The translations under genes and the position numbers were made by a program. Below are positions 4,720-30,736 of a DNA stretch of 64,000 nucleotides, in pieces. The DNA comes from Monosporascus cannonballus (lineage: Eukaryota > Ascomycota > Sordariomycetes > Xylariales), in assembly GCA_004154925.1 (NCBI GenBank), contig QJNS01000143.1:124001-188000 (forward strand), written 5' to 3'. Numbering within the stretch: the first letter of the stretch is position 1; the number at the start of each line of letters is the position of its first letter. The notes under the pieces were generated by a model. That model was not told where the DNA came from, searched no databases, and saw only the letters and a program-made list of their open reading frames with translations.

Positions 4720-4781
4720 GGCAATCAGTATGGGACCTTTCCGTATATGGGGAGCGCGCCGCACCCCCCAGCTAGCTAACA
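4720..4781 (-). repeat. Truncated 3' LTR of Copia-A copy 2
   Basis: Reading on the minus strand it starts TGTTAGCTAGC and matches the first ~60 bp of the LTR at 9,799-9,963, including the CCATATACGGAAA run. It then changes abruptly into the family Y 5' end at about 4,720. Confidence 0.8.
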
Positions 4782-7700
4782 CACCTCCTTAACGCCTTAA
4801 AGCATTTACGGCGTTAATCGTCATATTTCATCATGTTTTAAAGCTACAGCTATATATTCTACCTTTCCTCCAGCGATTAAAGTTTTCTAATTAATTAATT
4901 TCTTGTTTAAAATAACTCTTAAGGCTTTTTTTTCGCTAATCCAGGGCTTTTATAATATTTATTAATCTTAATTACTTTTTAAAATATCTAAAGGCTTTTC
5001 GTAACAGGGCTTTAATTAATCCTTTAATTGATATATTATTTATAAACGTATAATCTATTTTGATTAACTTTTTTTATTGCTTTTCGCAACTAATAATTAT
5101 ATATATTTATATACTGTAACTTTATTTTAAAAAGGACGACGTCGACATTAATTAACCGTGTACTTTATTAATTATTGCATTATATATTTACCGGTTTTAT
5201 GTTTAGGCCGATTTTTAATTTTTCGATTAATTAAAAATAAAATATTGTTTTATAATTTATATAAAATAATAATTCCGTTTTAATTAAAAAAATAATTATT
5301 ATATTTTATTTATTGGCTTAATATCCTATTATTTCGCCGAATAATTTCATAACATAAAATTAAAAGCTTCTTTAATTAATTATTGTATTTACGAAAAAAA
5401 TAGCGCTTTAAATATTTGTCGAAATTTCATTTTTGAATTATAATATTAATATTTTAATACCAAATAAGTATAGTATAATTCGATTAATAACTTTATAATA
5501 TACGTTACTAACGTTTCAATGAAATTAGGAAAATCGGGATATCTTAAAAATATATTTAATAATATTTTAAATGTAATATATAAAATAAAACCGAAATTTT
5601 TCTAATATTTGTGAATTAACTTTAAATAAATTAAATTAAAATTCGGCAATAATTTAATATTTGTTATAAACGTTTTTAGTCAGTTATTTCGATTTTGTAA
5701 AAATTAAATTAACCAGCTTATTTATAAAATCTGATTAAAATAACCAGATTTTTTTAACTTTATTTTTAATTATTTCGATTTCGAAAAACTATTATAAATC
5801 TTTATTCCTTATAAAGGTATACCGTTCCCGAATTTATTAAATTAATTAATAAACGAAATTTTAATTCTTTTTATTATATGCGATAATAATATCGTTTACG
5901 AAAAAAAAACACCTTTAACGAATTAAATAATAAAGTTCGTAAAAAATAAAACTTAATGTTAAATTCTGTAATATGTTAATAAACCTTTTCTGCCAAAATA
6001 AAAATAATTCCTTTAATTTATATAATGCTTTTTTAATTATGAATATTCTTTTATATTGAAAAATCTTCAGAGTATCTTTATATATATTTCGTAAAATAAC
6101 GTTATATTAACGAAAATGTTTATAATGTTATATTACTTAAGTCTTAAGGTAAATTTAATTGCGGTAATGATTAAAGTTCGAAATAATTTCTTAAGGAATA
6201 TAAATACGTATATATTGCTATAAACGTCTTTTAATTATTAATCGTGTTATACGATGAGGTAAGCCTCATATTTTTATAATTAACCGTATTTATTATATAT
6301 ATCTTAAAATCTATTTTTAATAAAACATTAATTAATGATTTGCTAGGATTATAGTTTGTTTATAATTTAATAAGTAAGCCTTTTTAGATTTATAAAATAT
6401 TTCTTTTAATAAATATATATTTAAATTTTTTAGGCCTTGTAGCAATAACGGTAAATTACGCTTATATACCCGCTTTTACGACCTAAATACTTTTATATAC
6501 GCTGTAATATTAAAACCTTTCCGATTAAAATAATGTATATTTCGGGTAATTATTTTTCTTAAATTTCCGTAATTTACTAGCCGATTATCGTTCGCATTTA
6601 CAAAAACAGCTAAATGTTTAATGTTAAATACAGTTCCTCATATTTTATATTTATTTCGGATAATATTAATTGGATACGTAATATACGGAAAACTTACGTT
6701 TACGACCCGTAAGGCAATATCGTTTTTTACCGTTATTCTAAGTTGAACAATATAGTAAAAATTTAAAGTTATTTTTATTTTTTTTCCGTTAGCATAATAA
6801 TCATAATAATTATTAAAGTAAAAGTTGACGGCGGTACTAGTCCAAAAACGGAAATAATTCGAATATAACGGTTATATAAAAATAATTAATTTTTTATACT
6901 TAAATTTATTTTTCTCGATCCCGTCCGTCTTTTACGTTAATACTTTTTTAAATTATTTTTATATCTAATTAATAATTAAATTATTCCGTTTAAGGTTGCG
7001 TTTTCCTTTTATAAGTATAAAGGGTAATTATTAATTTAAATAGGTATTTTTATTTATTAAAATAAATTTTATAATTTGTTTTTCTATTGCGTATAAAAAG
7101 ATATATTTTAATTTTTTAGTATTTTCTGGAAATTAAACTTTTATTAAATTATAAGTTTCGAATAATAATAATTTTATTAATTAACCCATTTCAAATTTCG
7201 TAAATATTCGTAAATAAATTCATTAAAGTTTCCGATTACATATTATTACGTTATTTTTATATATTTAATAAATAAAATAAATTTCGTATCAGCTTTATTA
7301 AAAGAATATATATTTGGAGATGCGGTTATAGAGGTATATTATTGCTTTAAAATTATATACGGTTAAAAACGAAAATAATTCCACGTTATTTTATATCGTA
7401 ATTATTTTTTTCTAAAATTATATCTTTTAAACGTTTTGTATTTCCGTTTTAAATTTAAATATATAATATCAAGGGTTTAAACTTAAGATTAAAAAAGCAA
7501 TTAATAATATTTTTAAGCTGGGAATTCTTTAAGATATCATTATTATGTTCCAATATTTATAAAAATATTTTATTTTATTTCTTTCAAACTTTTAAAAAAT
7601 ATTACAACGTTATAATTAATATATTTGGTTTTTGAGTTTTAAAATAAATATTCTAAAAAAAGCTTAAATATCAGTCAATTATAAATATAACGTATTTGTA

Positions 7701-9798: not shown

Positions 9799-9963
9799 CG
9801 TTAGATATAAAGAACATTAATTGTGTTGTTATATTCCGCTAAGTTGTACGTACTACCGCACGCGTACAACTTTAAGTAGTTTAGCCACGGAACATATATG
9901 AGCCGATCAGTATAGGACTTTTCCGTATATGGGGAGCGCTCCGCACTCCCGAGCTAGCTGACA
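9799..9963 (-). repeat. 5' LTR of Copia-A copy 2
   Basis: Reading on the minus strand it starts TGTCAGCTAGCTCGGG and ends in TTATATCTAACG. It aligns over its full length with the 163-bp LTR at 1,725-1,887. The flanking base pairs on the right are CGAAT; the matching target duplication cannot be seen because the other end is truncated. Confidence 0.85.
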
Positions 9964-10099
9964 CGAATCGCTTTAATAGTTTGAAATAATCTGAAATCAT
10001 CCGGTAAAAGTGGTAATATTAAAGAATTTGCAGCTAAACTGCACAAAATTCTTTGTGTATTATAAAACCAAACACCGCCGATATTCCTCTAAACCGAAT

Positions 10100-10880
10100 C
10101 TAATTTTCGTTCAAATTTCTATCATTATTATTATCTTGCGCATTATCCGAATCCTTATTATGTTACGCGTTGTTGTTTTGCGCGTTATTCTTTTGCGCAT
10201 TATTATTTTGCGCGTTTTTTTTAGTACGCTTAAAACTTTAGTTATAAGCTCTACCTAACGAAACGCTAGGTTTTTCACCGAGAGACGTATCTTTTATCCA
10301 CTGTCCTGCTAACCTTTGATAATAGCTTAAAATATTTTTAACTAATTGTATATCTTTTTGTTAAATAATAATTCGTTTAGCCTAAGTAACGTATAAATTA
10401 ATTGTTATAAAATTTTAGATTATTTTCAAATTATTTCATATATTATTTACCTTGAAATAAGTCCATTAATATAGCTTTTGCCTTTTTTTACATAACGCCT
10501 CTGGCAAACATTTAGAATCGTAATTAGCTTTTAAACTATTGCGAAATTGTCTTTATTAAACGTTAAAAAAGCGTTTTTTTCAGCAGTAACTTAGTATGTA
10601 TTTAATATCGTCGGATCTTATACAAAACGGCGGTTATATATATTAGTATTTTTTTAAGATTATTTCATTTTATTAATGACAACTTACGGCCAGGTAAAAC
10701 GCTTTTTTTTTGCCTTTTAAAAGGAGCCGTGCGTTTAGGTATTGTTTTTCCAGCCGGGCGTTTAGGCATTATTTTCCTAGCCGGGGGTTATTTTACAGCG
10801 CGAGGAATTTTCTTTTTAACGCCAAATGGTTTTTTTGATTCCAGAATTAACTGGCGAATCGTTTACCTAATACGTGCCAT
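10100..10880 (-). pseudogene. Histone H3-like variant, RIP-inactivated, one intron
   Basis: On the minus strand an ATG at 10,880 opens a 245-codon frame (10,880-10,451, intron 10,450-10,405, 10,404-10,100) broken only by RIP-type stops. The start reads MARIR-stop-TIRQ, matching ARTKQTARK of histone H3 with the stop at Gln5. A basic Lys/Arg/Pro tail of about 80 codons follows, longer than in H3. The histone fold then reads YKIRRY(Q).HTKLLLKK.LF, QRLIKTISQ.FKS.LRF, a second helix ending ILMDLF, and after the intron INLYVT.AKRIII.QKDIQL. These match IRRYQKSTELLIRKLPF, LRFQ, LFED, TNLCAIHAKRVTI and KDIQLARR of H3. Loop 1 has canonical H3 length, not the longer CENP-A form. The tail after the fold is Asn/Gln-rich (NNNAQ units) and unlike H3. 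The intron donor is GTAAAT; the acceptor appears mutated AG to AA. H3 kinship is certain from motifs; function of the variant is unknown. Confidence 0.82.
10166..10214 (-). repeat. 15-bp tandem repeat in the C-tail of the H3-like pseudogene
   Basis: About three units of a 15-bp repeat separated by GCGCAA, encoding Asn-Asn-Asn-Ala-Gln type units on the minus strand. It gives the low-complexity C-terminal tail of the H3-like relic. Confidence 0.7.
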
Positions 10881-11334
10881 TTTGGCTATTATTACAATTA
10901 TGAAATTATTAGCAAATAACTTTTTTATAATTATTTTAATAAAACCTTCTTATTTTAATTAGGTTTATTATTATAATGGCGTAAGGTTATTAATTGCAGT
11001 TGCGGTATAATAATAAATAAGTATTTCGCGAATTTTTAATTAAATGTCGATATAGGCGATTTTTTTTAGAAAATAAAATATATAAAGTAATATAGGGTGA
11101 TTAAAAATTGTTTCTAAAATTTACCTAGGTACTTTATTTTAAAAAGTTTTATTTTCTTATTATAATAAAAACAATATCTATAGCATTATTATTTTACGAT
11201 TATTTCTTTAATTTTAATTTGTATAAATAATATTTCTTATAATAAAAATTTATGTATTATATAATAAAAATATATATTAAAAAAAGAAGGAATAGCTTTA
11301 TATCAAATTTAGTCCTCCTTTAAAATTTTCGAAT

Positions 11335-14300
11335 ATGATAATTATGTTACCTGATGTCTTGACTTAATAATTACGGGCCTGGTTTACTGTAATTTTAATA
11401 ATAGATTTAAATTATCTCCAAAAAAGGGCCTATTTTAAGTAAGCGCTAAAGTTTAATTTTTCGAAATCTTGTTCGCCTATCTTTTAATAACGGCCTTATT
11501 TTTGATATTGGTTAACCTTTTTCTTTTTCTACGAAATTAATCCTTAGATATAGCTCCTTTATGCTGAAATACGCTTATATCAGTAATTTAACTAATATAT
11601 GGAAATTCTCAGAATGTTTAATTTTCGTCCTCGTTATTTTCGGTTTTATCCGGATTTTTTAAATCGTTATTTAATACTCCGTAAAGTTTATCTGATGGTA
11701 GATTATATTAATCCGGCAATTTTCTTAGATTTTTAATAAATGAAATTTGAAATATTTTTCGTATTTTTTCCTGATTTTTTTCGAATTGTTTTTGCGCCTA
11801 AATAAAGTTATTATTATCGTATATAATATCGTTATTTAAATTAAATGCTTTAATTCGAAAATAAAATAATATAATTAAAGTTGATTTAAATTATTACGGT
11901 AATATTAATTAATGCTGAAAATAATATTTTAATTGAATAAAACTTTAAAAATATTTTATTATTACAGAAAAATAGTAAATATAGAACAAATTACGTATAA
12001 GATAAGTTATATGGGGGAATATATTGTTTTTCCGTTATCATAATATCAAAAACGTTTAGTTCGGACAAATACGTAATAATATAATTAAAAAATAATTTTC
12101 AAAATCTTAATGAAATAATTTACTTTCGTATTAAATATAATCGTTAAATATATTTTTTACGCATTATCATTAATACAGTATATTGAATTCCTTTTTTCAA
12201 AATTTGAATTTAATAAGAAAATTTCGGTAAGATTTCCGTAATTCGAAATGAAGATACCTGTAATAAATTATATATTTTGCTTATTATATTTTTCGTAGTA
12301 TTTTTTACACGTTTGCTTAAAGTATTTAATGGTTTTCCCGTAAAATGTAGTATTAAATAATTTTAATTAAAAATATTGTTACTGATTATTAAAGTAATTA
12401 TAGAATTTGATAACCGTATAGCTTAATAATAAGTAAATTAGAACAAAAAGATAAATTAATAAGCGATTATTAATAAATAAATTGTTAGTATATTTGAAAC
12501 TTTTCAAATTTATTCACTTACTACTTTTTCGTAATAATCGTAACTATATTAATAGTCGGTTAATAAACTTAAAAAATGTTAATTTCTTTTTTTTTCTTAT
12601 TTTTTTTTAGTTTTTGATACGGGTAATACTTTTAACTAGCCTTAACGATATACTTTTGACATTTACGTAAATGCTTAAATATAATTTTATATTCGTTTAT
12701 TATGTAAAAAATATAGTTTTCTCGGAAAAAAACCAACATTATTCGTTATTTAAATAAAATATTTGAAAATATTAGCTAAATAACCAATATATTTAATACC
12801 GTTAAGGAGCAATACATAACCCGCTTTTTTCAGTAATAAATATTCGCAAATAAAGTTTTAAATTACAGGATATATTTTTATAGTACGTAATAAGAAAAAG
12901 AACTGCTAAACTTTAACGGCTATAAACGTTACAGATTATTTGAAATACGTTTTATAATTTAAAATCTTTTTTCTAATTATATCTTATTAAATTTATTAAA
13001 AAGGATTATTTTTTTATTAAAGCTAAAATAAATCCAGATAATATATATACGTAACTATAAAAATTAAATAATTATTGTCTAATTATTTCAAAAAATACAT
13101 ATTAATATAATTATATATTCCTTTTTCGGGTTAATAAGATTTTTGCTTTATTTCGGCAAACTTTTAAAATTTTTATTTTGTTTGCTTAAATCTTTTCAGA
13201 TTTATACGGTGGCCTTATGCTACAAGTTTTGAAAATTATTAAATGCTCTTTATAAAACATACGACGTATATATATAATGCCGAATTTCGTTTGCTTATTG
13301 GAATTTATCGCCTAACTTTCGATAAAATTATTTTTGTATAATTATTTATTTAATATTAAGGTTATTATCCGCAATAAAAACGCGAAATCGGTTAGTCATT
13401 TCTAATTCTTTTAATCGACGCAATAATATGTTATTATTAAACGTATTCTATTTAATATTATAAAGTTAAATATCAATTAAAAATAATATTTTTTCTATTT
13501 CCGGTTAATCTAATAATTAACAATTACTTAAAATGAAAATGCTAAATAAAGCGTAATTTTAACGTTATAACAATTAAATTAATAAATTTTTAAACGAATA
13601 TTTTTAAATCTAGATTTAATAACCGCGTTAATATATATCCGTATATATTTTATATATATTTCTATTATTAATAATTTGAAGTTATTACTAATAAATAATA
13701 TTATAACTCGAAAATATTTATTTAAAAAGTTCTTAATAAATAAGTATTAAAATACGAAATAATTAATTAAAAACCCCAATTAAAATTAAGCATTTTAAGT
13801 AATATTAAGTTTTAATTATAATAAGTAAAAATGATTTTAAATTTATTACCCTTAAAAGAAAAAGGGAGCAAAATTAAAAATAAATAAAATCCAATAAAAA
13901 TCTATAAATAAAAAGCTATATAATAATAATTTCAAAATTATTTTAAATTATATATATACAATAATTATATTAATAACTTTATTATTAGTAACTGAGTTTA
14001 TCTAATTTACTTTTTTACAGTATATATTATTCTGTAAATATTTTTTATAAAGTTTATCCCGTTTTTTGGGAAAAGTAAAATATATAAAATAATATCTATA
14101 CCGCCGATATTTAATGTTAAGTTATTTAATTATCAGTTAACAAATCTATATACATTTTTTTAGTATTCCGAATTACGGTTTATTTTATTAAATATGTTAA
14201 TAATTTCGTTTAATAAATATTTGTTCTTTTTGTTATTAATATTTTTTTAAAATTATAATTACTGCTAAAACCAAATTATCTAATCCTCGTATTAATGCTC

Positions 14301-14960
14301 CCGATATTCGTAATATTCTCAGTTAACAATAGAAAATTCAATTTCTTGTTATATCTGGGATTAGGGTCGGCTCGAATAGTTTAGCATAATAAAACGGTTT
14401 TTTTGGCTAGGTAAGCTCGGTAAATTAAGTTATTTTTCGTTTGGTAATTATTAGCTAAATTATAAATAATTAGGTTCCGAATATAATTTTTAAATATTTT
14501 GTATTTAATTTAACTCTATTTTAATCGGCTTTTTATTTTATTAATATTTACTGTTGTTTTTTAGGAAATAGTTTTGGTTAAGGATTTTATTATTATTTTA
14601 TAATAATATATTTTGTAATAATTTATTATTATCGAAAGTATTATCGTCAAAACTAAAACATTCGAAAATTTGCGATATTGTTTCGACATTATAATAAATT
14701 CGATTAAAACTATACTAAAAATTCTTTTTATAATAAACGGATAATTAACAAAATTAGAAAAAAATCGAAATTACGTAGATAACTGGCAATATAAGGTCCT
14801 AAAATTACGTATTAATTTTTTCGAATGTTATTTATTTTCTTTCTTTTTTTATTAAACCTTTGTAATAAAGTTATTTCTTTTATTTACTTTAATTCAAACC
14901 TAATACTATCGAAATAATATAATCGGAAAATTACCCGTATTAAGTAATATTTTAAATTTT
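11335..14960 (-). pseudogene. Degraded minus-strand coding sequence of unknown family
   Basis: Several long minus-strand stretches read as coherent protein once TAA/TAG are taken as former Gln codons. They lie at about 11,800-11,340 (charged, with RKLPD.YNLPSDKLYGVL, then a KRKR-rich patch), 12,330-12,000, 13,440-12,600 (with ADNNLNI, KLGDKFQ.ANEIRHYIY, later GFFPRKLYFLHNKRI) and 14,480-14,230 (with YRAYLAKKTVLLC.TIRADP). Frame changes between stretches may be introns or indels. No reverse transcriptase, DDE or other catalytic motif is recognised, so no family is assigned. It lies upstream of, and on the same strand as, the H3-like pseudogene, so both may belong to one multi-gene element. Confidence applies to 'former coding sequence', not to its being a single gene. 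Confidence 0.4.
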
Positions 14961-17900
14961 TTACGAATTAATAATATTTAAATCGAATTTTATTAAAATT
15001 CCAATACTTTTAATCTTAATACTTTCTTATTCCCTAAATTTATGAGATAAATGCTTATTTAACTTATAATACAAAATAAGCTAATACTATTAATTAGCTT
15101 TGCTTTTAAATCTGCTAAAAATGGTAAATAAATTAATAAAGTTTTAATTAAAAGCATTTGAACGTAAAATTCGACGTTATAAACGGAAATATAGTAATAA
15201 GTATATAACTCGGATTATTTCATAATTATTTTATTATTAATATTTTCCAGTAAATATATTGCGCGATATTCGAAAATATCAAAAGAATACCAGTTTAATT
15301 TTTGGAAAAAATATTATTTTAATATATTGTTTTTAATGTATTTGTAAATATATTATTTTAATTTATACGGATAAAAACGTTTACTTTAAAAGCATTATAA
15401 AAAGCTGTAAACACTTTTCATTTTTTTATTTTAAAATAATAGTTTTTACGTCATTTACAGTAATTAAGTAATAGTTTAAGTAAAAAAATATTTGAATTAT
15501 TCGGAAGATGTATTTCTATTAAAATATAATTATTATAAGGCCGGCTATTTAAGGTTGAAAAAATCTAAAAAATACTATGTATTTTGTATATTATTTTAAT
15601 TAACCTTTTATTATTTATTTTAAATATTAATTTACAAGAAGGCTAAAAAATAATTAATACTATCTAATTAAGTAACTCCCGATTTAAAATTTATAAATGC
15701 AATATTCCTTATTAATAAGTCTTTAAATTTCGAATATTCCATATAAATTTTTACTTAATTAAATTTCTGCTTTTATTAAATATTTTTTATTTTATTTTAT
15801 TTATTTAATAATTTAACTCTTTCTATTTCCAGCTTAATGAAATCTTATTACTTTTTCTTATTATAATCCGTTATTTTTAATTACCGTTATTTAATTTTTA
15901 AATTAATTTTGAAATAATTTTATTTAAGGTTTTTGGCTTCAAGTTTCGCGATATCTTTTTTATTTAAACGTCAAAAATCCGACGAATTATTATCTTAACA
16001 TTCGTATACTAAAAAGGTTCGGACGCGAAAAACCAATATTTTAACAAAATAAAATAATATCAAAAAAGTTCGTTATAACTTATAATAACAAATTAAGCGT
16101 AAATTAAATAATTAAAAACGCTTAAATTTATATGTAATTTCCGAAAAATAAACGGAGCAAAATATAATTATTAAGTGGGAAATTAATATTTGTTAATAAT
16201 TAATATTTTATAATTATTTTAATATTTTATTAATTATTAATAATTAAGCAAATTAGTAATATCATAATTAAATTATAACGAGATAAATCAAGGTTAAAAA
16301 TATATTTATTATATTATATAATAATAATAAAATATATAATAACATTAATAATAAAATATCCGAAATATTTTATTATAACGATAAAGGCGTTAATAATATT
16401 CTTTTTTAATTTATTTTTAGTTACTTAAATAATTGGATAGTTTAATTATCGAAAAATCTTATTATATTTTAGGTTATAAAGGTTCGTATAACGATCGGAG
16501 AAATAAAGTTTTACTTTAATAATTTTTTGATTATTTTATTAATATTTTTAACGCTTAATACCAACTTAAGATGGAAATATTTTACCAAATTTTCGTTCAA
16601 AAATAATAACAAATTTCCATATATGCGTTACGTTAAAATTGCCGAATTTATTATTAATAGAATTACAAATTTCGTAATAAAACTTCGTTATATCTTTTGA
16701 CTATTTTTAATAAATAACGCCCATATAAATTAAAACGATTTTAATATTAATATTAAACTTAAAAATGTTAAGAAAATTCCTTTTATATATTATTTCGTAA
16801 ATTCCAATTATTTCTTAATTATTTAATTTTTTTAAGTTTTTTTTAATATAATTTTAAGTTATTTTACGTTTAACGTTTCAGATAATATAATATCGTAAAA
16901 GATTTGAACTTTAAGTTATATTAATATAAAAATAACCTTTAAACGTTTTTAGAAATTATAGATTCTTATTTGTAAAAATATTTCGGCTTTAGATATAATT
17001 TTCGACAGTTCCTTAAAATACTTTTTATTTACGAAAAAGGGCTTTTGCTATATTACTTGGCCCGTTATAAATTTTACGATATTTTATTTAAAAAAAGTAT
17101 TTTCGTTTAATATTATAAAAAAAATATGGACTTTATAAAAAGTTATTATGGTTTTTAACTTAAACAAATTCGAAATTAAGGAAAAACTTTACCCGTTTAA
17201 TTATATTGAAGCCTAACGTTATAAATAAAGATATTAAATACTTATTTTTAAATTATTTTAAAATAATATAATTATATTTTAAAATATATATAAGCGGATA
17301 TTCTGTTTATTTAAGATTATCCGGTACTTTATTATTAAAGGTTACCGGCTTTATAACCTGGCGTAAGAAGGTTAAAGAAAATTATTTTATATGTTATTTT
17401 AATACGAAATTCGGTCGCCTTATATTTAAATTTCGCCTTTAATATTCGACCTTTTTTTATTATAAATATATTATGAGAAATTATAGGATAAAGTTTTAAT
17501 TATATTAAGAAATTTAAGCAAAAATGGTTTGAAATATATAAAAATAATGAAAATTAATTAGATTTCGAAATTAATATATTAATTAAAAATATGAAAAACG
17601 TTTTAAAAAACTTATTAAATAAAACCTTTAAAAAGGGTTTAATATTATTAATTACGTTTATGTCAAAACTTTTTCTACTATATTTAATAATACGAATTTT
17701 AAGTTTTATATAAGTCAAAAGTTTTGTAAAAGAAATTAAAAATAATTTAAATTCAGGGCGGTTATAGTATTAATTTATTGGCCGTAACGTAAATTATTTT
17801 CTTTTTTTCCCTGTTAAGTTTGGTTTATAAAAGTAATTAGTTATAATGAACTTAATTTATTATATAAAATAATTACTTTAGATTTTTCAAGTTACTTTTT

Positions 17901-18076
17901 TTAAAAAAAAATTATATTTAGGGTATTATTTTTTTATCTAAAAATAATATATCTTATTTTTATAATATAATAATTAATTTAAATTATTTTCTTACCTTTT
18001 TTAATAAGTTTGAAATTTACGTATTTTGCTAATAGATAATCGTAAATACCTAATAAGTTTTTGGCATTATCTATTA
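14961..18076. other. AT-rich, RIP-degraded sequence without identifiable gene
   Basis: The stretch is strongly A+T-rich with scattered ACG/TCG remnants typical of mutated repeats. Short coherent pieces can be read (for example near 17,300-17,440), but none is long or distinctive enough to assign to a family or strand. Confidence 0.5.
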
Positions 18077-18154
18077 GGTACCCGCGGGTAATTCTGACTT
18101 GCGCCAAGGACCCATGGGTCACCCATGGGCCCTTGACATTACCCGCGGGTACCC
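18077..18154. repeat. GC-rich palindrome at the left edge of island 1
   Basis: GGTACCCGCGGGTAAT at 18,077 is repeated inverted as ATTACCCGCGGGTACC about 60 bp later. Between them, CAAGGACCCATGGGT and ACCCATGGGCCCTTG form an inner inverted repeat. The left arm carries about 12 extra bases (around TCTGACTTGCGC). It marks the abrupt AT-to-GC switch. Confidence 0.8.
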
Positions 18155-18640
18155 GTGGGCCGTGGGTAATTTTCGGTGGGTGGTTTCTCCCTCACCCTAG
18201 ATCTGGGTAGGCAGGCGGATGCTGTTCCCGATGTGACTCCACGGATTGTTGTGAGTGATAAATCGGTTGATGGGCGAAGCGAGAGCGCGGGTAACGGTAA
18301 ACGACTCCCGCCCCGGCAACATCACGCCCAGGACCATCACCCCCGGGACATCTTCGCCGGGAAGTTTATCCGGGGCCCCATGGCCCCACTCTGACCCCCC
18401 GCCGGTTACGAGCACCGTAATAAAGGCCTTTGACCGCGGGGTTAAACGAAATAACAGGGCCGTTCAAGCCTTGCTGGAGATGTTGAAGTAGACGCAGTTT
18501 ATAAGTGTTATTGCATAGATTAATTAATGTGTGTTGTCACCTGACGCGTTGGAATGCACCTTGCTGGTTGGTTTATATAACGGTTACTGGAAGGCGGCTG
18601 CAGTGGACCCGTGCGCCCTACCAATTTAACTAGCTTTCTA
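18155..18640. other. Small GC-rich island, possible unrecognised coding remnant
   Basis: About 490 bp near 55% G+C, with no RIP, within AT-rich DNA. Two overlapping plus-strand frames are open: 18,176-18,394 (72 codons, GTG start) and 18,255-18,491 (78 codons, TTG start). The latter ends in a helix-like segment around VIKAFDRGVKRNNRAVQALL. Neither has an ATG start, a recognisable domain or a clear splice structure, and the composition is Pro/Ser/Thr-rich in the second. It could be a 3' gene fragment or a non-coding repeat. I do not recognise it. Confidence 0.35.
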
Positions 18641-19025
18641 TAGGATCAGTTAGATATATTCTAACATAATCTAGTAACATATATATTAATAAATTAATTT
18701 ACAATTAGTAAAGTTCTATTAATTTTAATATTGCAATTTGTTTTTACTTTTTCTAAAAAAAATCGCAATTTTTATATTATTATGTTTTATAAATATTATG
18801 AAGTTACATAAACGGTTTAAAAGTTCTAACAATAAATAAAACCGATTGTATTTAATTAAATATATTAAGAATAAAACTATAGCATAATATATAATAGTTA
18901 CTCGATTTTATAATTACTTAAAAAGATTATTTTTGTATTAAAAGTTTTTATTAAAAATTATATTAAAAAATAAAAGATGTTAAATATAAAACATTAATAA
19001 AATAAATTTAAATATATTTATATTA
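18641..19025. other. AT-rich spacer
   Basis: AT-rich sequence between island 1 and LTR Z1. No gene, repeat or RNA feature was recognised. Confidence 0.5.
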
Positions 19026-19379
19026 TAACCCAACGTCCTTGGCACAACCGGAAACAGTCAAAATAAGTGGAGCACCAGGAAAAGGATCACGTGACGAGAG
19101 TCAGAATTATTGGGATCTTGCGAGATCATAATGATTTAGCGATAACTGGTAACTAGAATCAAGTATAATACGCTCATTACTTCCATAGTCTAGATAGCAC
19201 CAGCCTGCAACACTCATCAATACTAATCGTTTGCAATAACAATTCGTTACCCAAGGCACCCTTGGTATTACAAGACGTAACACGATTACTGTATTTATTG
19301 CTCAATTTCCTACGATACTCCTGCCAACATAAACTCGTACGACTAAGGTTTAATAGTTGGTTAAACCGCCTAGCCGTCA
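19026..19379 (-). repeat. Solo LTR-like element, family Z copy 1, with 5-bp target duplication
   Basis: A 354-bp block running TAACCCAACG...GCCGTCA on the plus strand, thus TGACGG...GTTGGGTTA on the minus strand. It is flanked by TATTA at 19,021-19,025 and TATTA at 19,380-19,384, a perfect 5-bp duplication. Related copies lie at 19,649-19,950 and 62,879-63,187. It retains much more G+C than its surroundings, so it escaped most RIP. No internal retroelement sequence adjoins it, which fits a solo LTR. Confidence 0.75.
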
Positions 19380-19384
19380 TATTA

Positions 19385-20995
19385 ATAAAAAATATTAAGC
19401 GGTATTAAATATTATTAAAATTTTTTATAAAATGATTTTATTTTAAAATGTTAATTAAGCCGAAATATAAATTATTTTAATTTTTTTAAAAAAAATATAA
19501 TTATAATAACAAATAAAAGCGGGAATAATATTCCGCATAACGGTATTGTATCATAACGGTATATTACGAACATAATTTTAAATATTAAAGTTATTGTATT
19601 AAAATACGATATTATCCTATTATACTTAATTATTATATCACGTTCTGATAAGGTACGGCCTCTAGAAACGGTTGTAACAGAAACAGCCAAGAAGACCAAG
19701 TGGGTCAGATCACGTAACGGATCACTAACTTACTAGTGGTAAGCCAGTGCACCGGATAAAAATATATACGTTCGTTATTTTCATAGCTTAAATAATATTA
19801 GCTTGCAAAACAACTTCGTTACCTAAAATACGCTTGGTATTACGAGATATAACCCGTTACTATATTTATTGCTTAGAATTCTACGATACTTTTGCCAATA
19901 TAAATTCGTACAACTTAAGTTTAATTATTAATTAAACCGCTTAGCTGTTGAATATAAAATATAACTTATTTGAATTAAAATTATATCATTATAAAAAATT
20001 AATCCTATTATTTTAATATTTCTATTGACTGAATTATAGTTTTATTTATTATATAATAATTTTCATAAATGCTTAACACTTTAAATATATCGATATTATT
20101 CAATCATAAACTCGAAAATAATAAAACTTTATTTAGTAAATAAGAAAAGTAGTTACGGTTAATTTTTAAAATTATTTTAATTAAAAAAATTGAAATTATG
20201 AAAAATATATATATATATATAACTATTCGGATTGTTATTGTTACGAACTTATTTCATTTTCTTTCTCGTATTATATAATTATTATTTTTAAATGTATAAT
20301 TATTGGTTTTAAAATTTAAAATTAATTAAAAATAACGGTTTTTACAAAACATTAAGTTTCGTTTAAAATAGTATAAATTATTTCAATGTCGAATAATAAT
20401 CTTTCTAGCAAACAGGAGAATTTTCTTTTATAAAAATTGTAAGTTTTTCGTTTAATATATTATAATATTTACATATAACGAGGTTTTAACTAATCGGAAT
20501 TAAAAACTCTTATTAACCCTTGTATATTAATAAATTTTACATATTTACTTTTTTAGAAAATGTTAATTAACCCATTAATTTGAATAATTAAATACTTTAA
20601 TTAGTTATTATTTTCGTAAAAAAATATATTTATAAATACAGTTTTAAATATTGCATTAAATCTTTTATGTTAATAATAAAAATTTAATATATGCGTAAGT
20701 ATATTTTGATTTAAAGATACAACGTAAACAAATTATAACTTAAATTTGTTATATTTTAAAAAATAATAACATACTAAATTTAAGCTATATTTAATATATA
20801 ATTTAAAATTTAAAAACAATAAACGAATTTTAATTAAAATTAAAATAATATTAATAATAAACTATAATTGAAATAATCGTATTAATATATATATATAGTT
20901 ATAAAAATATTTTGATATTAAGTTATTATAAGTTTTTGTTTTTTTTTAAAAAAAAAATAACAGCACTAAACGAAAACGTTTTTGTGCAATTATAA
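19385..20995 (+). repeat. Family Y repeat, copy d (3' part), interrupted by Z copy 2
   Basis: On the plus strand this matches the minus strand of about 3,190-1,999: 19,515-19,645 matches about 3,180-3,040, 20,040-20,140 matches about 2,950-2,860, 20,330-20,600 matches about 2,650-2,400, and 20,870-20,985 matches 2,110-1,999. Identity is moderate because both copies are RIP-damaged. The homology is broken at 19,649-19,950 by a Z insertion that is absent from the other copy. Confidence 0.7.
19649..19950 (-). repeat. Solo LTR-like element, family Z copy 2, nested in Y copy d
   Basis: It aligns with Z copy 1, sharing for example TTGGTATTAC, ATTTATTGCT and the TTAAACCGC...TAGC end. Comparison with the uninterrupted Y sequence near 3,040-3,000 shows it is an insertion. 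The target duplication is too mutated to call exactly. Confidence 0.65.
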
Positions 20996-21113
20996 CTCAG
21001 GCTTCACTGGCTCGTTACGGGGATTTGGGATTTGATTGGTTAATATTTAGCGTTATAGAGCGATACTTGAGTGACTTTGAAGAAATTGGGAAAACGAGCC
21101 AGGGAGGCCTGAG
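20996..21113. repeat. 118-bp inverted-repeat element (MITE-like) at the left edge of island 2
   Basis: Arms CTCAGGCTTCACTGGCTCGTT (20,996-21,016) and its near-complement at 21,093-21,113 agree at 19 of 21 positions. The body contains no ORF. An inverted, RIP-marked homologue covering the left arm and body lies at 1,888-1,998. The size and terminal arms resemble a MITE, but the target duplication is ambiguous, so family is not assigned. Confidence 0.65.
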
Positions 21114-22063
21114 GTAACTTGTGCACGCCCTGGATGGAGGGGCACAGCGCACATGTGGACCCACATTTCCAAGAACCAGTTCTCGTCCCCCTCCATCAGA
21201 AGCACGAGCTCTGACATCTTCCGTTTTCCATCTTCCTGCTTCGCGTTTCCTGTTATCCACAATGTGCTCATCCAGCGTCCAGAAATGGCCGTTGGGGGTT
21301 AAATTCGTCGGAATGGCCTCCACCCTTAAATGGCGGGAAGTGCCTCTATGCCTGTACGTTCCGCTCGCTCGCTTTTCTTCCTGTCTCTCGACAGATTCAT
21401 CCTCACATTCTCGTTTCGCTGGGAAAAGTCATGTATTTCAATTATCGTGGTTTTTAAACGTTTCGCGGTGTCAAATACTCTGGCTGGACAATGTCCCACG
21501 TAATCGCCCCTTTACGCACCCGACCAGCAACCGCAAGTCTCATCCAGGAAAGCTATGCCGCCTTCCTTTAACACTTTGTAACACGAAAGGCAAAAAATCG
21601 AACTACTAAATAAAAGCCGACATTCTCGGTTAAGAAATATGCCGCTCACCAAACACAGTTAAGCAACGTCCGCTTTATCAAACCAAAATATTCCCACGAA
21701 AAGGAAATTAATGTTAGCGGGATATTTAAAAAGTGTGTCGTGGAATAGGGTCATCTGTGTTAGTCATCAAGCTCTACAGCACCCCGGAAAAACCTTATTC
21801 CGGCGCGCTCACAGTATATAGAGAGCTTCCTAGCTACAGCTCCCTAGAGCTTAATTCTAGTCAGACAATTATCACTTCCCACATTCTATGCAACCTTTTC
21901 CCGCGATCAGCCTAACTGTGACAAAATGGAAAAGGTAAATACAGTTGTCATAAAGTAAATACAAAATATCTTGGAATTTTCGTGAAATGCGATTACTAAT
22001 CTTTTATGGCAACTCGGCAGATTTTACGAAAACCTAAAGGTTAGCGACTGGGAGGTAACCATC
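21114..22063. other. GC-rich region without recognised gene, left part of island 2
   Basis: Normal-composition fungal DNA without RIP. The plus frame 21,121-21,609 (GTG start) and the minus frame 21,323-21,015 (ATG start) overlap each other; neither shows a known domain, and the minus frame runs into the inverted-repeat element. The region before 22,060 could contain upstream exons or promoter of the recombinase fragment; an ATGGAAAAG followed by GTAAAT near 21,924 looks like a possible first exon and donor, but this is a guess. Confidence 0.4.
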
Positions 22064-22538
22064 GAAATCTAAAGCGCGAAACGACACAGAAGTTCTTCCT
22101 CTACTTTTGCGAGAATTTGAAAATTACATCATGGGTACCGGCGAAAAGTATATTCGTCAATTCCAGCAACTATATACGACCGTAACTGGGCAGTATATGG
22201 ATCGAAATGATACTAAAAAAGCATGCAAGGTGCATAAATGCTTCGGATTCTGCATACGGCCGGCAGGGTTTATAACATACAAATGGTTAATGTCAAATAG
22301 TATTACCGATATATTCTGATTCCTCGCTTTGGTCATCGCCCCCCAAACCTCGAGGGCAAGCCGGTGCTAAACGTGGATAACTTGCTTGTTATCTTAACCT
22401 TCAACATCCCATACGATGTCAGCATCTTTCCCGGCGAACGACACCGCATACAGTTCACCTGCTGCTATCAACTTCTCTGCTATACTGGAGCACGACCAGC
22501 TGAGCTGGTAGATGGCGAACGGAAGAAACCGAAAGACG
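22064..22538 (+). pseudogene. DUF3435-type tyrosine recombinase fragment (first catalytic Arg retained)
   Basis: Two plus-strand frames join into one protein-like segment. The first (about 22,080-22,230) reads YIRQFQQLYTTVTGQYMDRND, resembling the N-terminal core of fungal DUF3435/FluG-domain recombinases. The second (about 22,316-22,538) reads LIPRFG..PPN, GKPVLN.DNL, FPGERHRI, then CYTGARPAELVDGERKKPKD. The GARPAEL block is the box I Arg motif of tyrosine recombinases, with the Arg codon at 22,493-22,495. The frame change near 22,230-22,316 could be an intron or an indel. The C-terminal half with the remaining catalytic residues is absent because the sequence switches into an NLR remnant at about 22,540. 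This family includes captains of Starship elements and Crypton-like enzymes; which clade this belongs to cannot be told by eye. Confidence 0.7.
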
Positions 22539-22547
22539 CATCGGCCG

Positions 22548-23478
22548 AGCAGCATTTTGGTGAAGGAGTATCTAAAATCAGCGAATATTAAGCCCAGCTT
22601 TTGTGACGATTTACAAGAGCAAAGGGCGGAACAAACCTTCGCAAAGGTCTGTGTGACCTGCCTGCTCCGGATTAAAGAGAACAGCATGGCTGAGCTTATC
22701 CGACATCAATTTCCCTTTGCGCAGTACTGTTCAGAGAACTGGTATATCTACAGTGCCATGCCAAGAACGGAGCCTAATAGACTTCATACTAGAATAATGG
22801 AGCTGCTGAGCTGGAACGAAGTTTCTGTTGCTAACTCTATCTGTCTTTACCCAATGGATCGGCGCGGGCGACTCAAAGGCGCAAGCCATGGCCTTGCACC
22901 TCCGCTATATTATGCCTCGTTTTCAGGCCTGTCCATTGAGGTAGGGGCACTCCTTGACCAGGGCGCAAATGTCAACGCGGAAGGGGGGAGAGTACGGCAA
23001 TGCTCTACAAGCTGCTTCTTTTAAAGGGCACAATGAGATCGTGGAGATGTCCTAGCTAGTGGCGCAATTTTTGAGGAGCAGAGAGGACATTACGGCAATG
23101 CTCTACAGACTGCGTCTTTTAAATGACATGATGGAATTGTGGAGATGCTCCTGGCCAATGGCGCAAATGTCAACGCGCAGAGCGGATTTTGCGGCACTGC
23201 TTTACAGGCTGTTTCTTCTAAAGAGTACGATACGATTGTGGAGATGCTCCCAGCCTATGGCGCAACTGTTAAGGCGCCGAGCAGATGCTATAGACCCGAT
23301 GGTGATGCTCTGCAGGCTTCTTCAGGAGGGGCACGATAAGATTGTCGAGATGCTCCTAGCTAAGGGCGCAAATGCTAACGCGCGGAGCAGACGCTATGGC
23401 ACTGCTCCACAGGCTGCTTCTTCAGGAGGGCACGACAAGATTGTCGAGATGTTTCGAGAGGGCCACGCACGGTCGTAG
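22548..23478 (+). pseudogene. NLR-like protein remnant with C-terminal ankyrin repeats
   Basis: The sequence starts at SILVKEYL, matching the segment after the NACHT/winged-helix part of fungal NLR proteins, continues through FAKVCVTCLL and FPFAQYCSENW, then about six ankyrin repeats (GANVNA, YGNALQAAS, H..IVEMLLA.GA). NACHT and N-terminal effector domains are missing. The frame is broken by an extra G in the run at 22,983-22,988, a 1-bp loss near 23,050, a TGA at 23,124-23,126 and an extra G near 23,328-23,331, ending at TAG 23,476-23,478. The first two indels cancel. G+C is normal, so decay was not by RIP. The last repeats are the most alike, as expected of ankyrin arrays that expand by duplication. 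It directly abuts the DUF3435 fragment with no spacer. Confidence 0.8.
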
Positions 23479-23754
23479 GCTAGGTGACTATAGCAACCTT
23501 TTCACGGTCAGAACATCTGCATGACACGTCTGCCTATTCTGCGCAACTGCGAAGGTTCGATATTCCTCCCTGGGAATCTTGCAGCCATGTTAGTGCAGCC
23601 CGTTTCTCTCGCGCTATAACGTAGAGAGATTCGAGTGTCCGTTCTGGTCTCGTGTAGATCTGGTAGCAAGACAATGTCTTTTCGAATCTCATTAGATGCT
23701 CCGAATACAGCATAGTATATCCGTAATGCGTGTGTGCAGATTCCCAGTCAGGGC
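23479..23754. other. Intergenic GC-normal DNA
   Basis: The space between the NLR remnant and the convergent ubiquitin hydrolase gene. No ORF or repeat was recognised; it should include the 3' untranslated end of the minus-strand gene. Confidence 0.5.
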
Positions 23755-24539: not shown

Positions 24540-24790
24540 TTTGGGGAATCAATAGATGGAGGATGTCGAAAATTCAGGAATGTTGGGGGAAGGAGATGGT
24601 GTAGAGATTGCAGGATCTGATTCTTAGAGCTATCACAAAACAGGGCGCCCGACAGTAGCTGTGAGATGATCAAAGACTACCATTGCGGGAAGCTGGATGT
24701 CGTGATACAAGTGGAGAGTCGTACTCTGCTCGCGGGGCGATATTTATCCGCGCCGGTCTCCGCCTCGATTTTGTAAAATAAACAACACCA
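24540..24790. other. Upstream region of the ubiquitin hydrolase gene
   Basis: GC-normal DNA between the gene start and the Tc1-like fragment, so its promoter should lie here. No TATA box or operator can be called with confidence. Confidence 0.4.
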
Positions 24791-25039
24791 TTCTTAGGTA
24801 CCTGATTGGTCTAGGCAATGAACTAACACCCATTCAAAGGGCAAGTATCATCGGTGCCCATCAGAATAGAGTTCCACTAACGGAGATCTCAAAAAGCACA
24901 GGAATTCCGCTCGGTACAGTCAAATATATGTGGAAACAGCGGAATCGCCGTGCAGAGCATCGGCAAAGGTCTATTCCGCGTAACCACCCTCGAAAAACGA
25001 CTTCAGCCCAAGATGATATAGAACCTATAGACACCTAAG
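24791..25039 (+). pseudogene. Tc1/mariner-type transposase N-terminal helix-turn-helix fragment
   Basis: A frame ending at TAA 25,037-25,039 reads GNELTPIQRASIIGAHQ, then LTEISKSTGIPLGTVKYMWKQ and a basic tail. This is the DNA-binding HTH that opens fungal Tc1/mariner transposases (RA.IIGA...G....I....IP.GTV). The DDE/D catalytic part is missing, as are an ATG in frame and terminal repeats. The fragment is not RIP-mutated. It could be a truncated transposon or a domesticated DNA-binding domain; a fragment is more likely because no start codon or promoter is evident. Confidence 0.65.
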
Positions 25040-25074
25040 AATCCGGCCATTTACGACATCCTAGGGTTTGCACT

Positions 25075-25163: not shown

Positions 25164-28100
25164 AAACGAAACTATTTACGAAGTAATTGCCTATAAGTAA
25201 TAAAAAAGCTAAATAGTTAACCACTTATAAGTACTTGTTTATAATATTAATATTGATTATATAAAAATAAATGATTTAAAATTTGAAAAAATTTAAATAA
25301 TATTAAATTACAATGAAATAAAAAGCTTTTAATATTAATATTAAAAATAAACATATTTAATTATTATATATAATTTTATTAACTAGTTTGATAAGTATAA
25401 TTGTATATTCATTTTGGTATTACTTAAATTGTTTATAATTTTCGTATATAAAATTAATTTAATTTAAATATGAATTAAATTAATCACAAAACCTTTATTT
25501 AAAATTCTATTAAATTATATATATATTTTTAAATATTACTTCTTGATTTAATTTTAAATTATAAAAATATTTTAAAATATCTTATTTTTACAGCATATTT
25601 TTATTTTATTTTACAATTTTTAATATTAATTAACGTATTAATACTAAACTTTACACACTAAGTAAAATAGAATTTATTTTATTATTTTTGGAATTTTTTA
25701 AGTCTTGTCAATATACGTCGTTTTGCGATTTTATTGCTTAATATTTCGAATGTAATAGATGTTTTCAGAAATTCTGTAAATAATTTAGCCGATAATACCG
25801 GATTACGATAAATTATTTAAATTTATAAACGTTGTATATCCAGTATATAAAAAATTAATGATATATATTTAGGTATTAATGTAAATATATTAATGAAATG
25901 GCAATAAAAATAATTCGGTTTTTTTCAAAAACTTCTATAAATACTTAATCTAATTGTAAAGTTATGGCGTTAAATAAATATTGAATATTTTTATATATAA
26001 AGTATTAAAAAAGCCTTAAGTATTACAACAGTATGATATTTTTTTAATACTGAGTTTTCGAAATAAATTAATTTAAATTAAAAATATTAAAATGAATAAA
26101 AAAATAACAAATAAAACTTAAGTAAATACATATTCTTTTCTAAATAAAGCTTAAAATATTTATTATATGGTTTTTACCGTATAAGTTTTTTGATTTTACC
26201 GACTATTTATATCAGTATTCTTTTACTTTTAGTTTTAATGTTGTTTATATTTTTAATAAAGTTATATTCTAAAGAAAATATTTACTTTTAACGTATTAAG
26301 TATCCAAAGATAATGCAATTTTAAATTATGTTTAATGTAATATTTTATTGTTAAAATATTATATAAATTTATGAAAGCATTTACTAACGAATTATTATGT
26401 ATATTACATGTAAACATCATCGATTATTTTTAAAAATTAATAACAAAATTGAAGTTAATAACAAAATCAACATTAATTTATTAAAATTGATATTAAGATA
26501 TATTTCCATATAATTTGGAAAATAATTTTTGCAATAGATAAGGCGAAATAAAATTCTTCCGATAAGATAAATAATTTGATTTTCAATTTATTTCTTTTTA
26601 AAAAACATTATAAATACATATTTTATTTTAATAGATAATAAATATTTAACTATAAAGTGTTATTGCTTTTTTAATGTTTTATTTATGTTTAACACTTAAA
26701 TCAGTTGGTAGTCATAATAAATTAAATTTTGATTATATACTAATTTTTCTCTACGTCTTTTTTTAAAATGAAATTAATTATATTTATATTTATTTTAGTA
26801 CTTATTTGAAATATAATAATTTGAGCAGCAGCTTAAACATTCCTAAGGTTGCCGATAATGAAAATGATGTTCAAACTTTATTTTTCTGTCCATTTATTAT
26901 TAACGTTTCGTAATTTAGATAAATTTCTCATTTCAGAGTAGTGGTATTGAATATCAAATTATTATATTTTTTAATTTATGTAGAAAAGAAAAGAAAAAAA
27001 GCGTATATTCACAATAAAATATAAATGTATTAAGGTAATGCAAAGTTTTATTTATTTTATTAATATGATAATAATCTCAATATAGAAATAATTACATATT
27101 AATACGACGAATTTAAAAAAAATAATTTTACATTAGATAAATATATAAAAATAGTGTATATTAAAAATACCGTGATGTATTAAATAATATAATAATTTTT
27201 ATATTCACAATGTGAATAATCTGTCTTTTTTTAAATTATAATTACCTGTTTACTTTCAATCTTAATTAATATTAAGAATTTATAAAATCGAAACATTATA
27301 TTATTAATCATAATTTTCGAGAAACGTTGATAAATAAGTTAATTATAAAATAATTTGGTAACCTTTATTCTATTTATAATAAGATGAATAAATTATTTAA
27401 CAAGTAAATTATTTTAAAATTAAAAAAATAGTTATAAATAATTAAGTTAAAAGTGTTTTTTATTTATAAAAATATAATATCGTTTTCGAATCGGATAGAA
27501 AATATACAAACGTTACAAAAATAAAATAAAATTTGATATTTTCGAAATCTTTAACTTTATAATGTTAATAGAATTGAAAATGATTTTAATCAATTAAAAA
27601 TCATATTTCTTAAAAATTAAATAATAATATATTAATACATATTTTATTTTATTTATATATTTCATATCTGTAAAAATACGATTTGATAACTTTATTGTTT
27701 TAAAAATATATAATTATAAGTTCTTTCTCTAAATGTTATAGGTATTATTAATAAAGATTTTTAAGATAAAATAATTAAATTATTTACAATATGTTTAAAA
27801 ACTTTCGTAATTTCGAGAGTAGCACTTTTTATAATATACATAATTTTAAATTATAAATTCTATTTCATAAATTCGAATAAATATATATATTACAAAACTT
27901 GAACAGGCTTATGTGTTTTCACTAATGTATGGCAACGTTTAAAGTTTTAACATGCTTTTTCTTTAAATAAACGATATATATATGTCTTTAAATTAATATT
28001 ATATACGAGGATTACAATTAGAATATATTAAGAATAATTTAAATTAAATTAAACAAAAAACTAAATCGAAATTTAATATATTTTTATTAATTAAGATATA

Positions 28101-29705: not shown

Positions 29706-30736
29706 CAAATATTCAAATTTAATAACTAAATTCACTAATTAATATTAATTAATTTATTTTACAAATCAAATTATGGAATTATTATTAATATTATTACAAT
29801 TTTAAAAAAATTCTTTTGAAATACAATATTAAAGTTGTATTATTTCTGTAAATAATTGTTTTAACTTGAAGATTATAAGAGTTATAAAGCTTATATTTTT
29901 TTTCATATTTCGATAGTACTTGTTTTATAAATATAATTTATTAACACGTTAAATTATAAATCTAAGTCGAATATATTTATACGTTATTAGCAATCGTAAT
30001 ATAAATATTAATATAAATTCATAATTTAAATTTTAACGTATCTATTAATTAATTTGCAGTTATCCAATTTTTAAAGACTTTTTCGTTTTTATTATAAAAT
30101 TGGCTTTTAATTTTTGGTTAATTCTTTGTAATTTATTTTATTAAATATGTAATTCGTTTTATATTCGGTTTGATTTTCGACATAACATAAGTATATAAAT
30201 TTAAGTTCGCCTTTTGTTTCGTTTTTACTTTTACGTTTGTTATATAAAGTATTGTTTAATTTTAGTGATTAACATTTTATTTTAATATTTAGTTTACTAA
30301 ATCTCTCTAATTTTTATTAGTTATAATCTAATTAACGAAATATACAAAAAAAATAATATATAAATTACTAAATTATTCCGAATAATGTTATAAATATCTT
30401 AGAATTAATGTTATTAAATATAATTATATGCAATTGAAAGTATAAAAATAAAACCTTAATATGTTGTTAATATAATTAAAATGAAATATATACTTTAATT
30501 ATTACACAGACATTATTTATTATTCGAGTTATTTATGTAATAGTTTTCTAACTTCGAATATTTTATATAAACTTTCCAAATATATTATTATTATTTCCTT
30601 AGTTTTTTTACTTATATCTAACCGTAATATATCTATTTATTAAGTTATATTTTTATTATAATCAGTGTCAAAAAATAATAAACGAAATTATAAAAGAATT
30701 ATAAAAATATACAATCTAATTATTTTCTAACGCTTT

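What the first reader, a model, noticed from the sequence alone, without database searches (positions are those of the whole stretch)
10100..10880. RIP-killed histone H3 variant with a long basic N-tail and an Asn/Gln-rich C-tail
A minus-strand frame of 245 codons with one 46-bp intron keeps the H3 tail start (MAR.R.T..R), the IRRYQ, LRFQ and AKR...KDIQL blocks, and has no indels. Every one of its roughly 13 stops is one C-to-T or G-to-A step from Gln, Trp or Arg. Loop 1 has canonical H3 length, so it is not an obvious CENP-A. RIP acts on duplicated DNA, so this gene was probably multicopy, which would be odd for a histone variant unless it rode on a mobile element. The extended tails are unlike any H3 I know.
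Basis: partly seen in the sequence, partly recalled or inferred. Interest (0 to 1): 0.9.

Follow-up and report, generated by a model that had tools for sequence, protein, structure and literature searches.

The report
Jumping gene carrying its own histones
This is a mutated, dead copy of a fungal jumping gene that carries two of its own histone H3 genes, a kind of element already described in other fungi, here with histone tails that lack the lysine cells use to mark jumping genes for silencing.

Summary
Window 10100-10880(-) is a RIP-mutated histone H3-like gene; read with X at stops it matches Pfam Histone at E 2.4e-14. It lies in a hAT-type DNA transposon copy (about 9967-18199) of an unnamed 88.8-Mb genome. 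The family typically carries two divergently transcribed H3 genes, H3-a (the finding) and H3-b (remnant near 15.2 kb). From listed matches I clustered 80 H3-a and 93 H3-b places of this subfamily; 45 pairs lie within 8 kb, all divergent. In a second subfamily, C118 has an 8-bp target duplication and C90 has both H3 frames open. H3-carrying hATs are published: Pyrenophora tritici-repentis (PMC3538342) and, RIP-killed and with up to two H3 copies each, Pseudocercospora and relatives (PMC6710886). So this is a new variant of a known kind. Not in the text I read there: introns at a site absent from host H3 genes, RIP-blind signs of selection on H3-a, and loss of Lys9 (10 of 10 copies read of the window's subfamily; 13 of 14 of the other). 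Most likely (about 0.4) H3-a was an anti-silencing histone; passive cargo is the main rival.

The parts
9967..18199 (.). Type II hAT-type element copy carrying the H3 pair; its H3-a side is cut off near 9967 by another repeat, its other end is present
   Evidence: homology to C511 stops at about 9966; 37 of 40 other genome matches of the neighbouring repeat end at 9963-9969; terminal TAGGGTGAGGGA at 18188-18199(-)
10689..10880 (-). H3-a exon 1: start and long basic N-tail (MARIRXTIRQ...), 2 stops
10632..10688 (-). H3-a intron 1 region, at the codon of canonical T45, phase 1; acceptor AG not present in this copy, present in C511
   Evidence: position and phase are my reading of the letters
10452..10631 (-). 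H3-a exon 2: histone-fold core, 6 stops, loop 1 of canonical H3 length
   Evidence: profile hit at 10455-10628, 36.4 bits
10397..10451 (-). H3-a intron 2 region (codon equivalent to D81, phase 1)
   Evidence: same place in C90; my reading of the letters
10100..10396 (-). H3-a exon 3: end of the fold (AKR...KDIQL) and Asn-rich C tail, 4 internal stops and a terminal TAG
12280..12615 (-). Possible remnant of the transposase C-terminal part (tentative)
   Evidence: 9.0 bits, i-E 5e-4, high composition bias
15169..15568 (+). H3-b remnant (exon with RDIRKYQ...), with stops and apparent frame shifts
   Evidence: tblastn 15259-15309, E 0.23 alone; frames; aligned to C489 at 72-87% per 100 bases with 3-6 transversions
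18047..18187 (.). Subterminal GGGTACCC-like repeats of the element end
   Evidence: similar motif at the type I ends
18188..18199 (-). Terminal sequence TAGGGTGAGGGA
   Evidence: 0.51 matches expected by chance at up to 2 mismatches; this one is exact; the C511 end carries the same CCCTCACCCTA letters
25062..25072 (+). Exact end TAGGGTTTGCA of a second, type I copy in this window
   Evidence: the only exact one of 10 matches at up to 2 mismatches; similarity to the C118 end region from 25052
26150..26245 (-). Remnant of the H3-a N-tail exon in the type I copy
   Evidence: 10.4 bits, i-E 2.3e-4; control best -4.6 bits
27373..27699 (-). Transposase C-terminal part of the type I copy
   Evidence: 26.5 bits, bias 24.2; no control match
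29894..30301 (-). Transposase N-terminal part of the type I copy
   Evidence: 51.0 bits; no control match

Best explanation
The locus is the RIP-inactivated H3-a gene of a hAT-type DNA transposon that encodes two H3-like histones, transcribed away from each other and, in copy C90, on either side of the transposase (shown or strongly supported). In live copies the H3 genes were the element's own spliced genes rather than a recently captured housekeeping gene (supported). Most likely function, about 0.4: H3-a entered nucleosomes, at the element or more widely, through its histone fold and H3-like tail start, but could not be methylated at position 9 and mostly not at 4, and so weakened H3K9-methylation silencing and whatever depends on it (inferred). 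The role of H3-b, with its unrelated long tail, is unknown; a second element-specific nucleosome subunit is a guess. The confidence given is for the identity part.
For: Histone match. Element: 45 of 45 type II pairs within 8 kb divergent, and 20 of 22 type I pairs. Ends TAGGGTTTGCA with 8-bp duplication GATAACAG at C118. Open H3-a (265 codons) and H3-b (237 codons) frames at C90 with introns chosen by me (Pfam Histone E 1.8e-34 and 1.6e-24). Intron at the T45 codon, phase 1, in H3-a and H3-b of both subfamilies, where the host H3 and CenH3 frames run on (my reading). RIP-blind transversions concentrate at third codon positions for H3-a: C90 against window 21/14/33 of 83 codons, p 0.0017; C90 against C118 3/1/9 of 88, p 0.0074. 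Position 9 not Lys in 10 of 10 type II copies read, out of 80 places, and in 13 of 14 type I copies.
Against: For H3-b between subfamilies the transversion test fails (29/16/29 of 89 codons, p 0.13), as it does for some close pairs (window against C511 2/4/5, p 0.29). Within type I, the tail exons, gene D and transposase N part show no significant third-position excess, and the core counts of that call include rows of the other paralogue and the host. Some pairs are not divergent: 2 of 22 type I pairs within 8 kb; between 8 and 20 kb, 3 of 19 type II and 1 of 5 type I. No expression, protein or chromatin data. The transposase pieces reach no Pfam cut-off (weak: Zn_Tnp_IS91 E 0.038, three DUFs at E 0.09-1.8), and the one piece compared finds nothing in the PDB. 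C90, the one copy in which I read both H3 frames open, has stops in its transposase and no matching target duplication. The H3 tree is unresolved. One type I copy (C618) has Lys at position 9 and three type II copies have Lys codons at position 4. Losing both lysines by chance, given how many of the first ten residues differ, is not very unlikely (about 0.07 for type II, 0.5 for type I; my arithmetic, no call).
Confidence: 0.9

Rival explanations
1. Passive cargo: the transposon captured a housekeeping H3 transcript once, duplicated it, and the copies have been pseudogenes ever since (the reading in PMC6710886).
For: Published for Pseudocercospora, Cercospora and Sphaerulina. The window copies are RIP-ruined. 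Host intron positions are not used by the element's H3 genes here either. No significant selection signal for several parts or for H3-b.
Against: Introns of its own at conserved positions; third-position transversion excess for H3-a; a copy with both frames open; largely fixed divergent order in two subfamilies.
Confidence: 0.35
2. The element's H3 proteins serve transposition itself, for example by bending or packaging the element ends or the excised DNA, rather than countering silencing.
For: In C90 the two H3 genes flank the transposase. GATTAGTAC occurs 26 times in the 8.7-kb C90 element and never in the other 31 kb of the fetched stretch, a possible binding motif.
Against: The motif was not found in the window (RIP-tolerant search without enrichment). 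Nothing here links histone and transposase.
Confidence: 0.15
3. One or both are transposon-borne centromeric H3 (CENP-A) variants.
For: Type I H3-a and H3-b have loop 1 two residues longer than the host H3, and H3-b has a long unrelated tail. H3-b is 52% identical to the host CenH3 core.
Against: Type II H3-a has canonical loop length. The type I cores are closer to host H3 (H3-a 63%, H3-b 57%) than to host CenH3 (50%, 52%). PDB matches shown for the window copy are H3, and for H3-b H3 or H3/CENP-A chimaeras. H3-a keeps an H3-type tail start.
Confidence: 0.05
4. The frame is a chance reading of AT-rich DNA.
For: The region has 0.25 G+C.
Against: Pfam E 2.4e-14, control at most -2.6 bits, many homologous places.
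Confidence: 0.005

Closest known systems
hAT elements with one or two H3-like copies in Pseudocercospora fijiensis, P. musae, P. eumusae, Cercospora zeae-maydis, Sphaerulina musiva and S. populicola (Dhillon et al. 2019, PMC6710886; I read the abstract, background, results, discussion and methods; not the figures or supplements)
   Same: hAT-type ends with 8-bp duplications, 9.5-9.9 kb there and 8.7 kb here (C90), two H3-like copies in each full-length element, many copies (784 H3-like sequences in P. fijiensis; here 80 and 43 H3-a places of two subfamilies, lower bounds), RIP in AT-rich blocks
   Different: There all element copies were inactive, the H3 copies were described without introns and as a captured transcript, and the second copy had a 16-residue insertion. 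Here one copy has both H3 frames open, the genes have introns of their own, and there are two subfamilies with different terminal letters. Tail lysines and a gene like D are not discussed in the text I read; the direction of transcription may be in a figure.
H3L-carrying hAT of Pyrenophora tritici-repentis (Manning et al. 2013, PMC3538342; I read the abstract and section 20, and passages)
   Same: hAT transposase, a further ORF of unknown function, a transcribed H3-like gene said to be neither H3 nor CenH3, insertions in the N-tail
   Different: One H3 gene per 5.6-kb element (26 nearly identical H3L copies in all), little RIP. Dhillon et al. report no similarity between that element and theirs; I could not compare it with this one.
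Canonical histone H3 of the same genome (C110, L004)
   Same: 63% identical to type I H3-a and 48% to the window copy over the compared core
   Different: Canonical tail with K4 and K9, other intron positions, no long tails

Membership tests
hAT superfamily | 8-bp target site duplication | tested here: met
   C118: GATAACAG on both sides, one copy. Not found at C90. Not testable at the window copy, one end of which is cut off; the far end of C511 was not found in the stretch fetched.
hAT superfamily | Short terminal inverted repeats | tested here: met
   TAGGGTTTGCA at both ends of C90 and C118. Type II: TAGGGTGAGGGA seen at one end only, in the window copy, with like letters in C511. That such termini are typical of hAT is recalled.
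hAT superfamily | hAT transposase domains (DUF659, hAT dimerisation, BED finger) | tested here: inconclusive
   Five pieces of the C90 protein reach no Pfam cut-off; best hint Zn_Tnp_IS91, E 0.038, below cut-off. No PDB match for one piece. The likeness of TTDVWTS and CFSHSLQ to hAT motifs is recalled.
Histone H3 | Histone-fold match with H3 as best relative | tested here: met
Histone H3 | Conserved tail with K4 and K9 (ARTKQTARKS) | tested here: not met
   Type II in effect ARIRQTARQS (C444 reads TRIRQTARQS), type I ARVRTQPRVAS in C90 (position 9): an H3-like variant, not canonical H3
CENP-A / CenH3 | Longer loop 1 and divergent tail | tested here: inconclusive
   Loop +2 in type I H3-a and H3-b, +1 in type II H3-b, canonical in the window copy; host CenH3 +3
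CENP-A / CenH3 | Centromere localisation | not testable with these tools
   needs ChIP data
RIP target | Repeat with transition-biased changes and TpA excess | tested here: met
   139 transitions against 40 transversions; indices. The usual thresholds are recalled. Contexts of the transitions: CA 48, CT 46, CG 23, CC 22, so CpA is not a clear majority.
H3-carrying hAT of Mycosphaerellaceae (PMC6710886) | Sequence relatedness to the published elements | not tested

The most novel reading that the evidence does not exclude
The transposon encodes its own chromatin: two H3 variants kept with the transposase over the divergence of two subfamilies, of which H3-a keeps the H3 tail frame but has lost K9 (Q or V) and K4 (R). 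A K9-less H3 would be a selfish anti-silencing histone, comparable to a viral counter-defence protein, acting against the heterochromatin system that guards fungal genomes.
Probability: 0.35. Interest if true: 0.85.

Novelty: new variant of a known kind. Interest (0 to 1): 0.52.

Why it matters
The two published accounts that I read treat H3 genes in hAT elements as captured genes, in one of them as cargo that RIP destroys. If instead the element maintains histones that cannot carry the K9 silencing mark, then a transposon, like some viruses, makes its own chromatin proteins to escape host silencing, and this can be tested in species with live copies. It also gives a natural series of H3 variants with altered K4 and K9.

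Tried and rejected
Chance frame: rejected. CENP-A: not favoured. Resolving a/b and I/II relations by tree: failed; the AU test rejects none of three topologies (p 0.146, 0.398, 0.792), so the claim of common ancestry of the four H3 lines rests on the shared intron. Matches of transposase profiles t4 and t5 in the window (6.7-6.9 bits) were dropped: the control reaches 6.0 bits with t4, and the t5 match overlaps that of t4. Gene D profiles found nothing in the window; I did not test further whether type II elements carry gene D. Target duplication of type II: not testable. GATTAGTAC was not found in the window. A sensitive DNA comparison was swamped by AT-rich noise; I used only its leading matches. 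A scan for inverted repeats gave nothing I used. Counting notes: the place lists were typed by hand. One search lists only part of its 174 matches. Rows that I judged to be the other paralogue, the other subfamily, the host genes or small extra pieces were left out and not tallied; two H3-b places (on C573 and C15) stand in both the type I and the type II list. 35 or more of the 80 type II H3-a places have no partner within 8 kb. The 8 extra type II tails were picked by tail matches near the start, not at random.

Full report
What is there. On the minus strand of the window, 10880 down to 10100, three exons (10689-10880, 10452-10631, 10100-10396) encode an H3-like protein with a long basic tail and an Asn-rich C tail. 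It has 12 internal stops, all TAA or TAG. Read with X at the stops it matches Pfam Histone at E 2.4e-14, and the 60 PDB sequences shown, of 174, are all named H3. A profile built from the core exon of other copies scores 36.4 bits at 10455-10628; on the six frames of the reversed window it scores at most -2.6 bits.

A mobile element. The window lies in an unnamed 88.8-Mb genome of 618 contigs; genes near C90 look like those of a filamentous ascomycete (Sec7, SRP72 and carboxypeptidase recognised from recall). A Pfam Histone search of that genome gives 48 matches, many with stops. Copy C118 is bounded by TAGGGTTTGCA ends and a perfect 8-bp duplication GATAACAG, a hallmark of hAT transposons. 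Copy C90 (about 442.19-450.91 kb) has the same ends but no matching duplication. C90 carries, in order, H3-a (-), a broken transposase (-), H3-b (+) and a gene D (+) of 506 codons without Pfam match at E 0.1. The transposase pieces reach no Pfam cut-off, so the hAT assignment rests on the ends, the duplication and motifs recalled.

The window copy is of a second subfamily (type II). Its homology to copy C511 stops at about 9966, where another repeat ends: 37 of its 40 other matches end at 9963-9969. Its other end is TAGGGTGAGGGA at 18188-18199(-), next to GGGTACCC-like repeats. An H3-b remnant lies at about 15169-15568 on the plus strand. A weak transposase match lies at 12280-12615(-). A second copy, of type I, starts at 25062, with transposase remnants at 27373-27699 and 29894-30301 and an H3-a tail remnant at 26150-26245.

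A kept pair. From rows that I kept, clusters 80 type II H3-a and 93 H3-b places; 45 pairs lie within 8 kb, all divergent, 37 of them 4.5-5.2 kb apart. Between 8 and 20 kb there are 16 divergent pairs and 3 others. For type I, 43 and 47 places give 22 pairs within 8 kb, 20 divergent. Many places have no partner within 8 kb, as expected of broken and interrupted copies.

The histones. Over the compared core, window H3-a is 35% identical to C90 H3-a, 68% to C511 and 48% to the host H3. Loop 1 is canonical in type II H3-a and two residues longer in type I H3-a and H3-b. All four lines (a and b, types I and II) appear to share an intron at the T45 codon, phase 1, and H3-a of both types a second one at the D81 codon; the host H3 and CenH3 frames run through T45 and are interrupted elsewhere. 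These positions are my reading of letters, and in type II H3-b (C489) no AG acceptor is present at the place implied.

Tails. In ten type II copies read at the tail start (window, C511, C33, C166, C109, C444, C255, C378, C171, C546; of 80 places), position 9 is CAG or CAA in six and TAA or TAG in four, never a Lys codon; position 4 is an Arg codon in six, TGG in one and a Lys codon in three (C33, C166, C171), which G-to-A RIP could explain. In the 14 type I copies whose exon was in fetched loci, position 9 is Val in 12, Ile in one and Lys in one (C618). The host H3 has the canonical ARTKQTARKS.

Selection. RIP makes transitions only, so transversions give a RIP-blind test. H3-a C90 against window: 21, 14, 33 at codon positions 1, 2, 3 of 83 codons (p 0.0017); against C511 19, 12, 32 (p 0.0007); C90 against C118 3, 1, 9 of 88 (p 0.0074). 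H3-b type I against II: 29, 16, 29 of 89 with C489 (p 0.13) and 30, 16, 29 with C511 (p 0.16). Close pairs have too few changes (window against C511 2, 4, 5, p 0.29; all). Within type I several exons show no significant excess. So constraint is supported for H3-a and not shown for H3-b. The comparisons are pairwise and not independent, and no correction for multiple tests was made.

Function. H3K9 methylation is associated with transposons and heterochromatin in fungi (passage in PMC8616336). That replacing K9 of H3 abolishes DNA methylation in Neurospora is recalled, not looked up. An element-encoded H3 that cannot be methylated at K9 would be expected to dilute that mark. This is the reading I commit to, at about 0.4; passive cargo is close behind.

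Known or new. H3-carrying hAT elements are in print. Manning et al. 2013 (PMC3538342; abstract, section 20 and passages read) describe one H3L gene per element in Pyrenophora tritici-repentis. Dhillon et al. 2019 (PMC6710886) describe 784 H3-like copies in 471 hAT repeats of Pseudocercospora fijiensis, one or two per element, all RIP-inactivated, and related events in five more species. A 2026 paper on Pseudocercospora retrotransposons (PMC13041039; five passages only) does not mention the H3 element in the passages seen. The answered searches listed no other report that I recognised from titles and abstract starts; most subscription papers are not held. The finding is therefore a new variant of a known kind, with a sharper functional hypothesis.

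Noticed in passing
L010/L011 (C90:442188-450914) and C118: The 9-mer GATTAGTAC occurs 26 times in the 8.7-kb C90 element, in either orientation and often in pairs 12 bp apart, and never in the other 31 kb fetched there; 12 of the 26 lie in 6 of the 8 introns I proposed for H3-a, H3-b and D (0.37 expected). 11 more in the C118 stretch. Possibly a binding site of an element protein.
   Followed up: partly
L008 (C165:11602-14808): A fragment like the host H3 gene (pieces 84% and 76% identical; 3 stops counted) joined to 169 bp that are 96% identical to the C90 element at the H3-a start region: an independent chimaera or capture.
   Followed up: partly
window 9800-9963 and 4724-4782: End of another abundant repeat: 40 other genome matches, 37 ending at 9963-9969; a 90% identical direct copy of 59 bp lies at 4724-4782.
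   Followed up: partly
window 18200-25061: Segment with stretches of normal G+C (up to 0.59) between AT-rich RIP blocks, holding the only three ORFs of 150 codons or more in the window (21121-21609, 22512-23024, 23755-24492).
   Followed up: no
L011:3839-5620 (C90 gene D): Five-exon gene model of 506 codons downstream of H3-b without Pfam match, with 121 matches in the genome; function unknown.
   Followed up: partly
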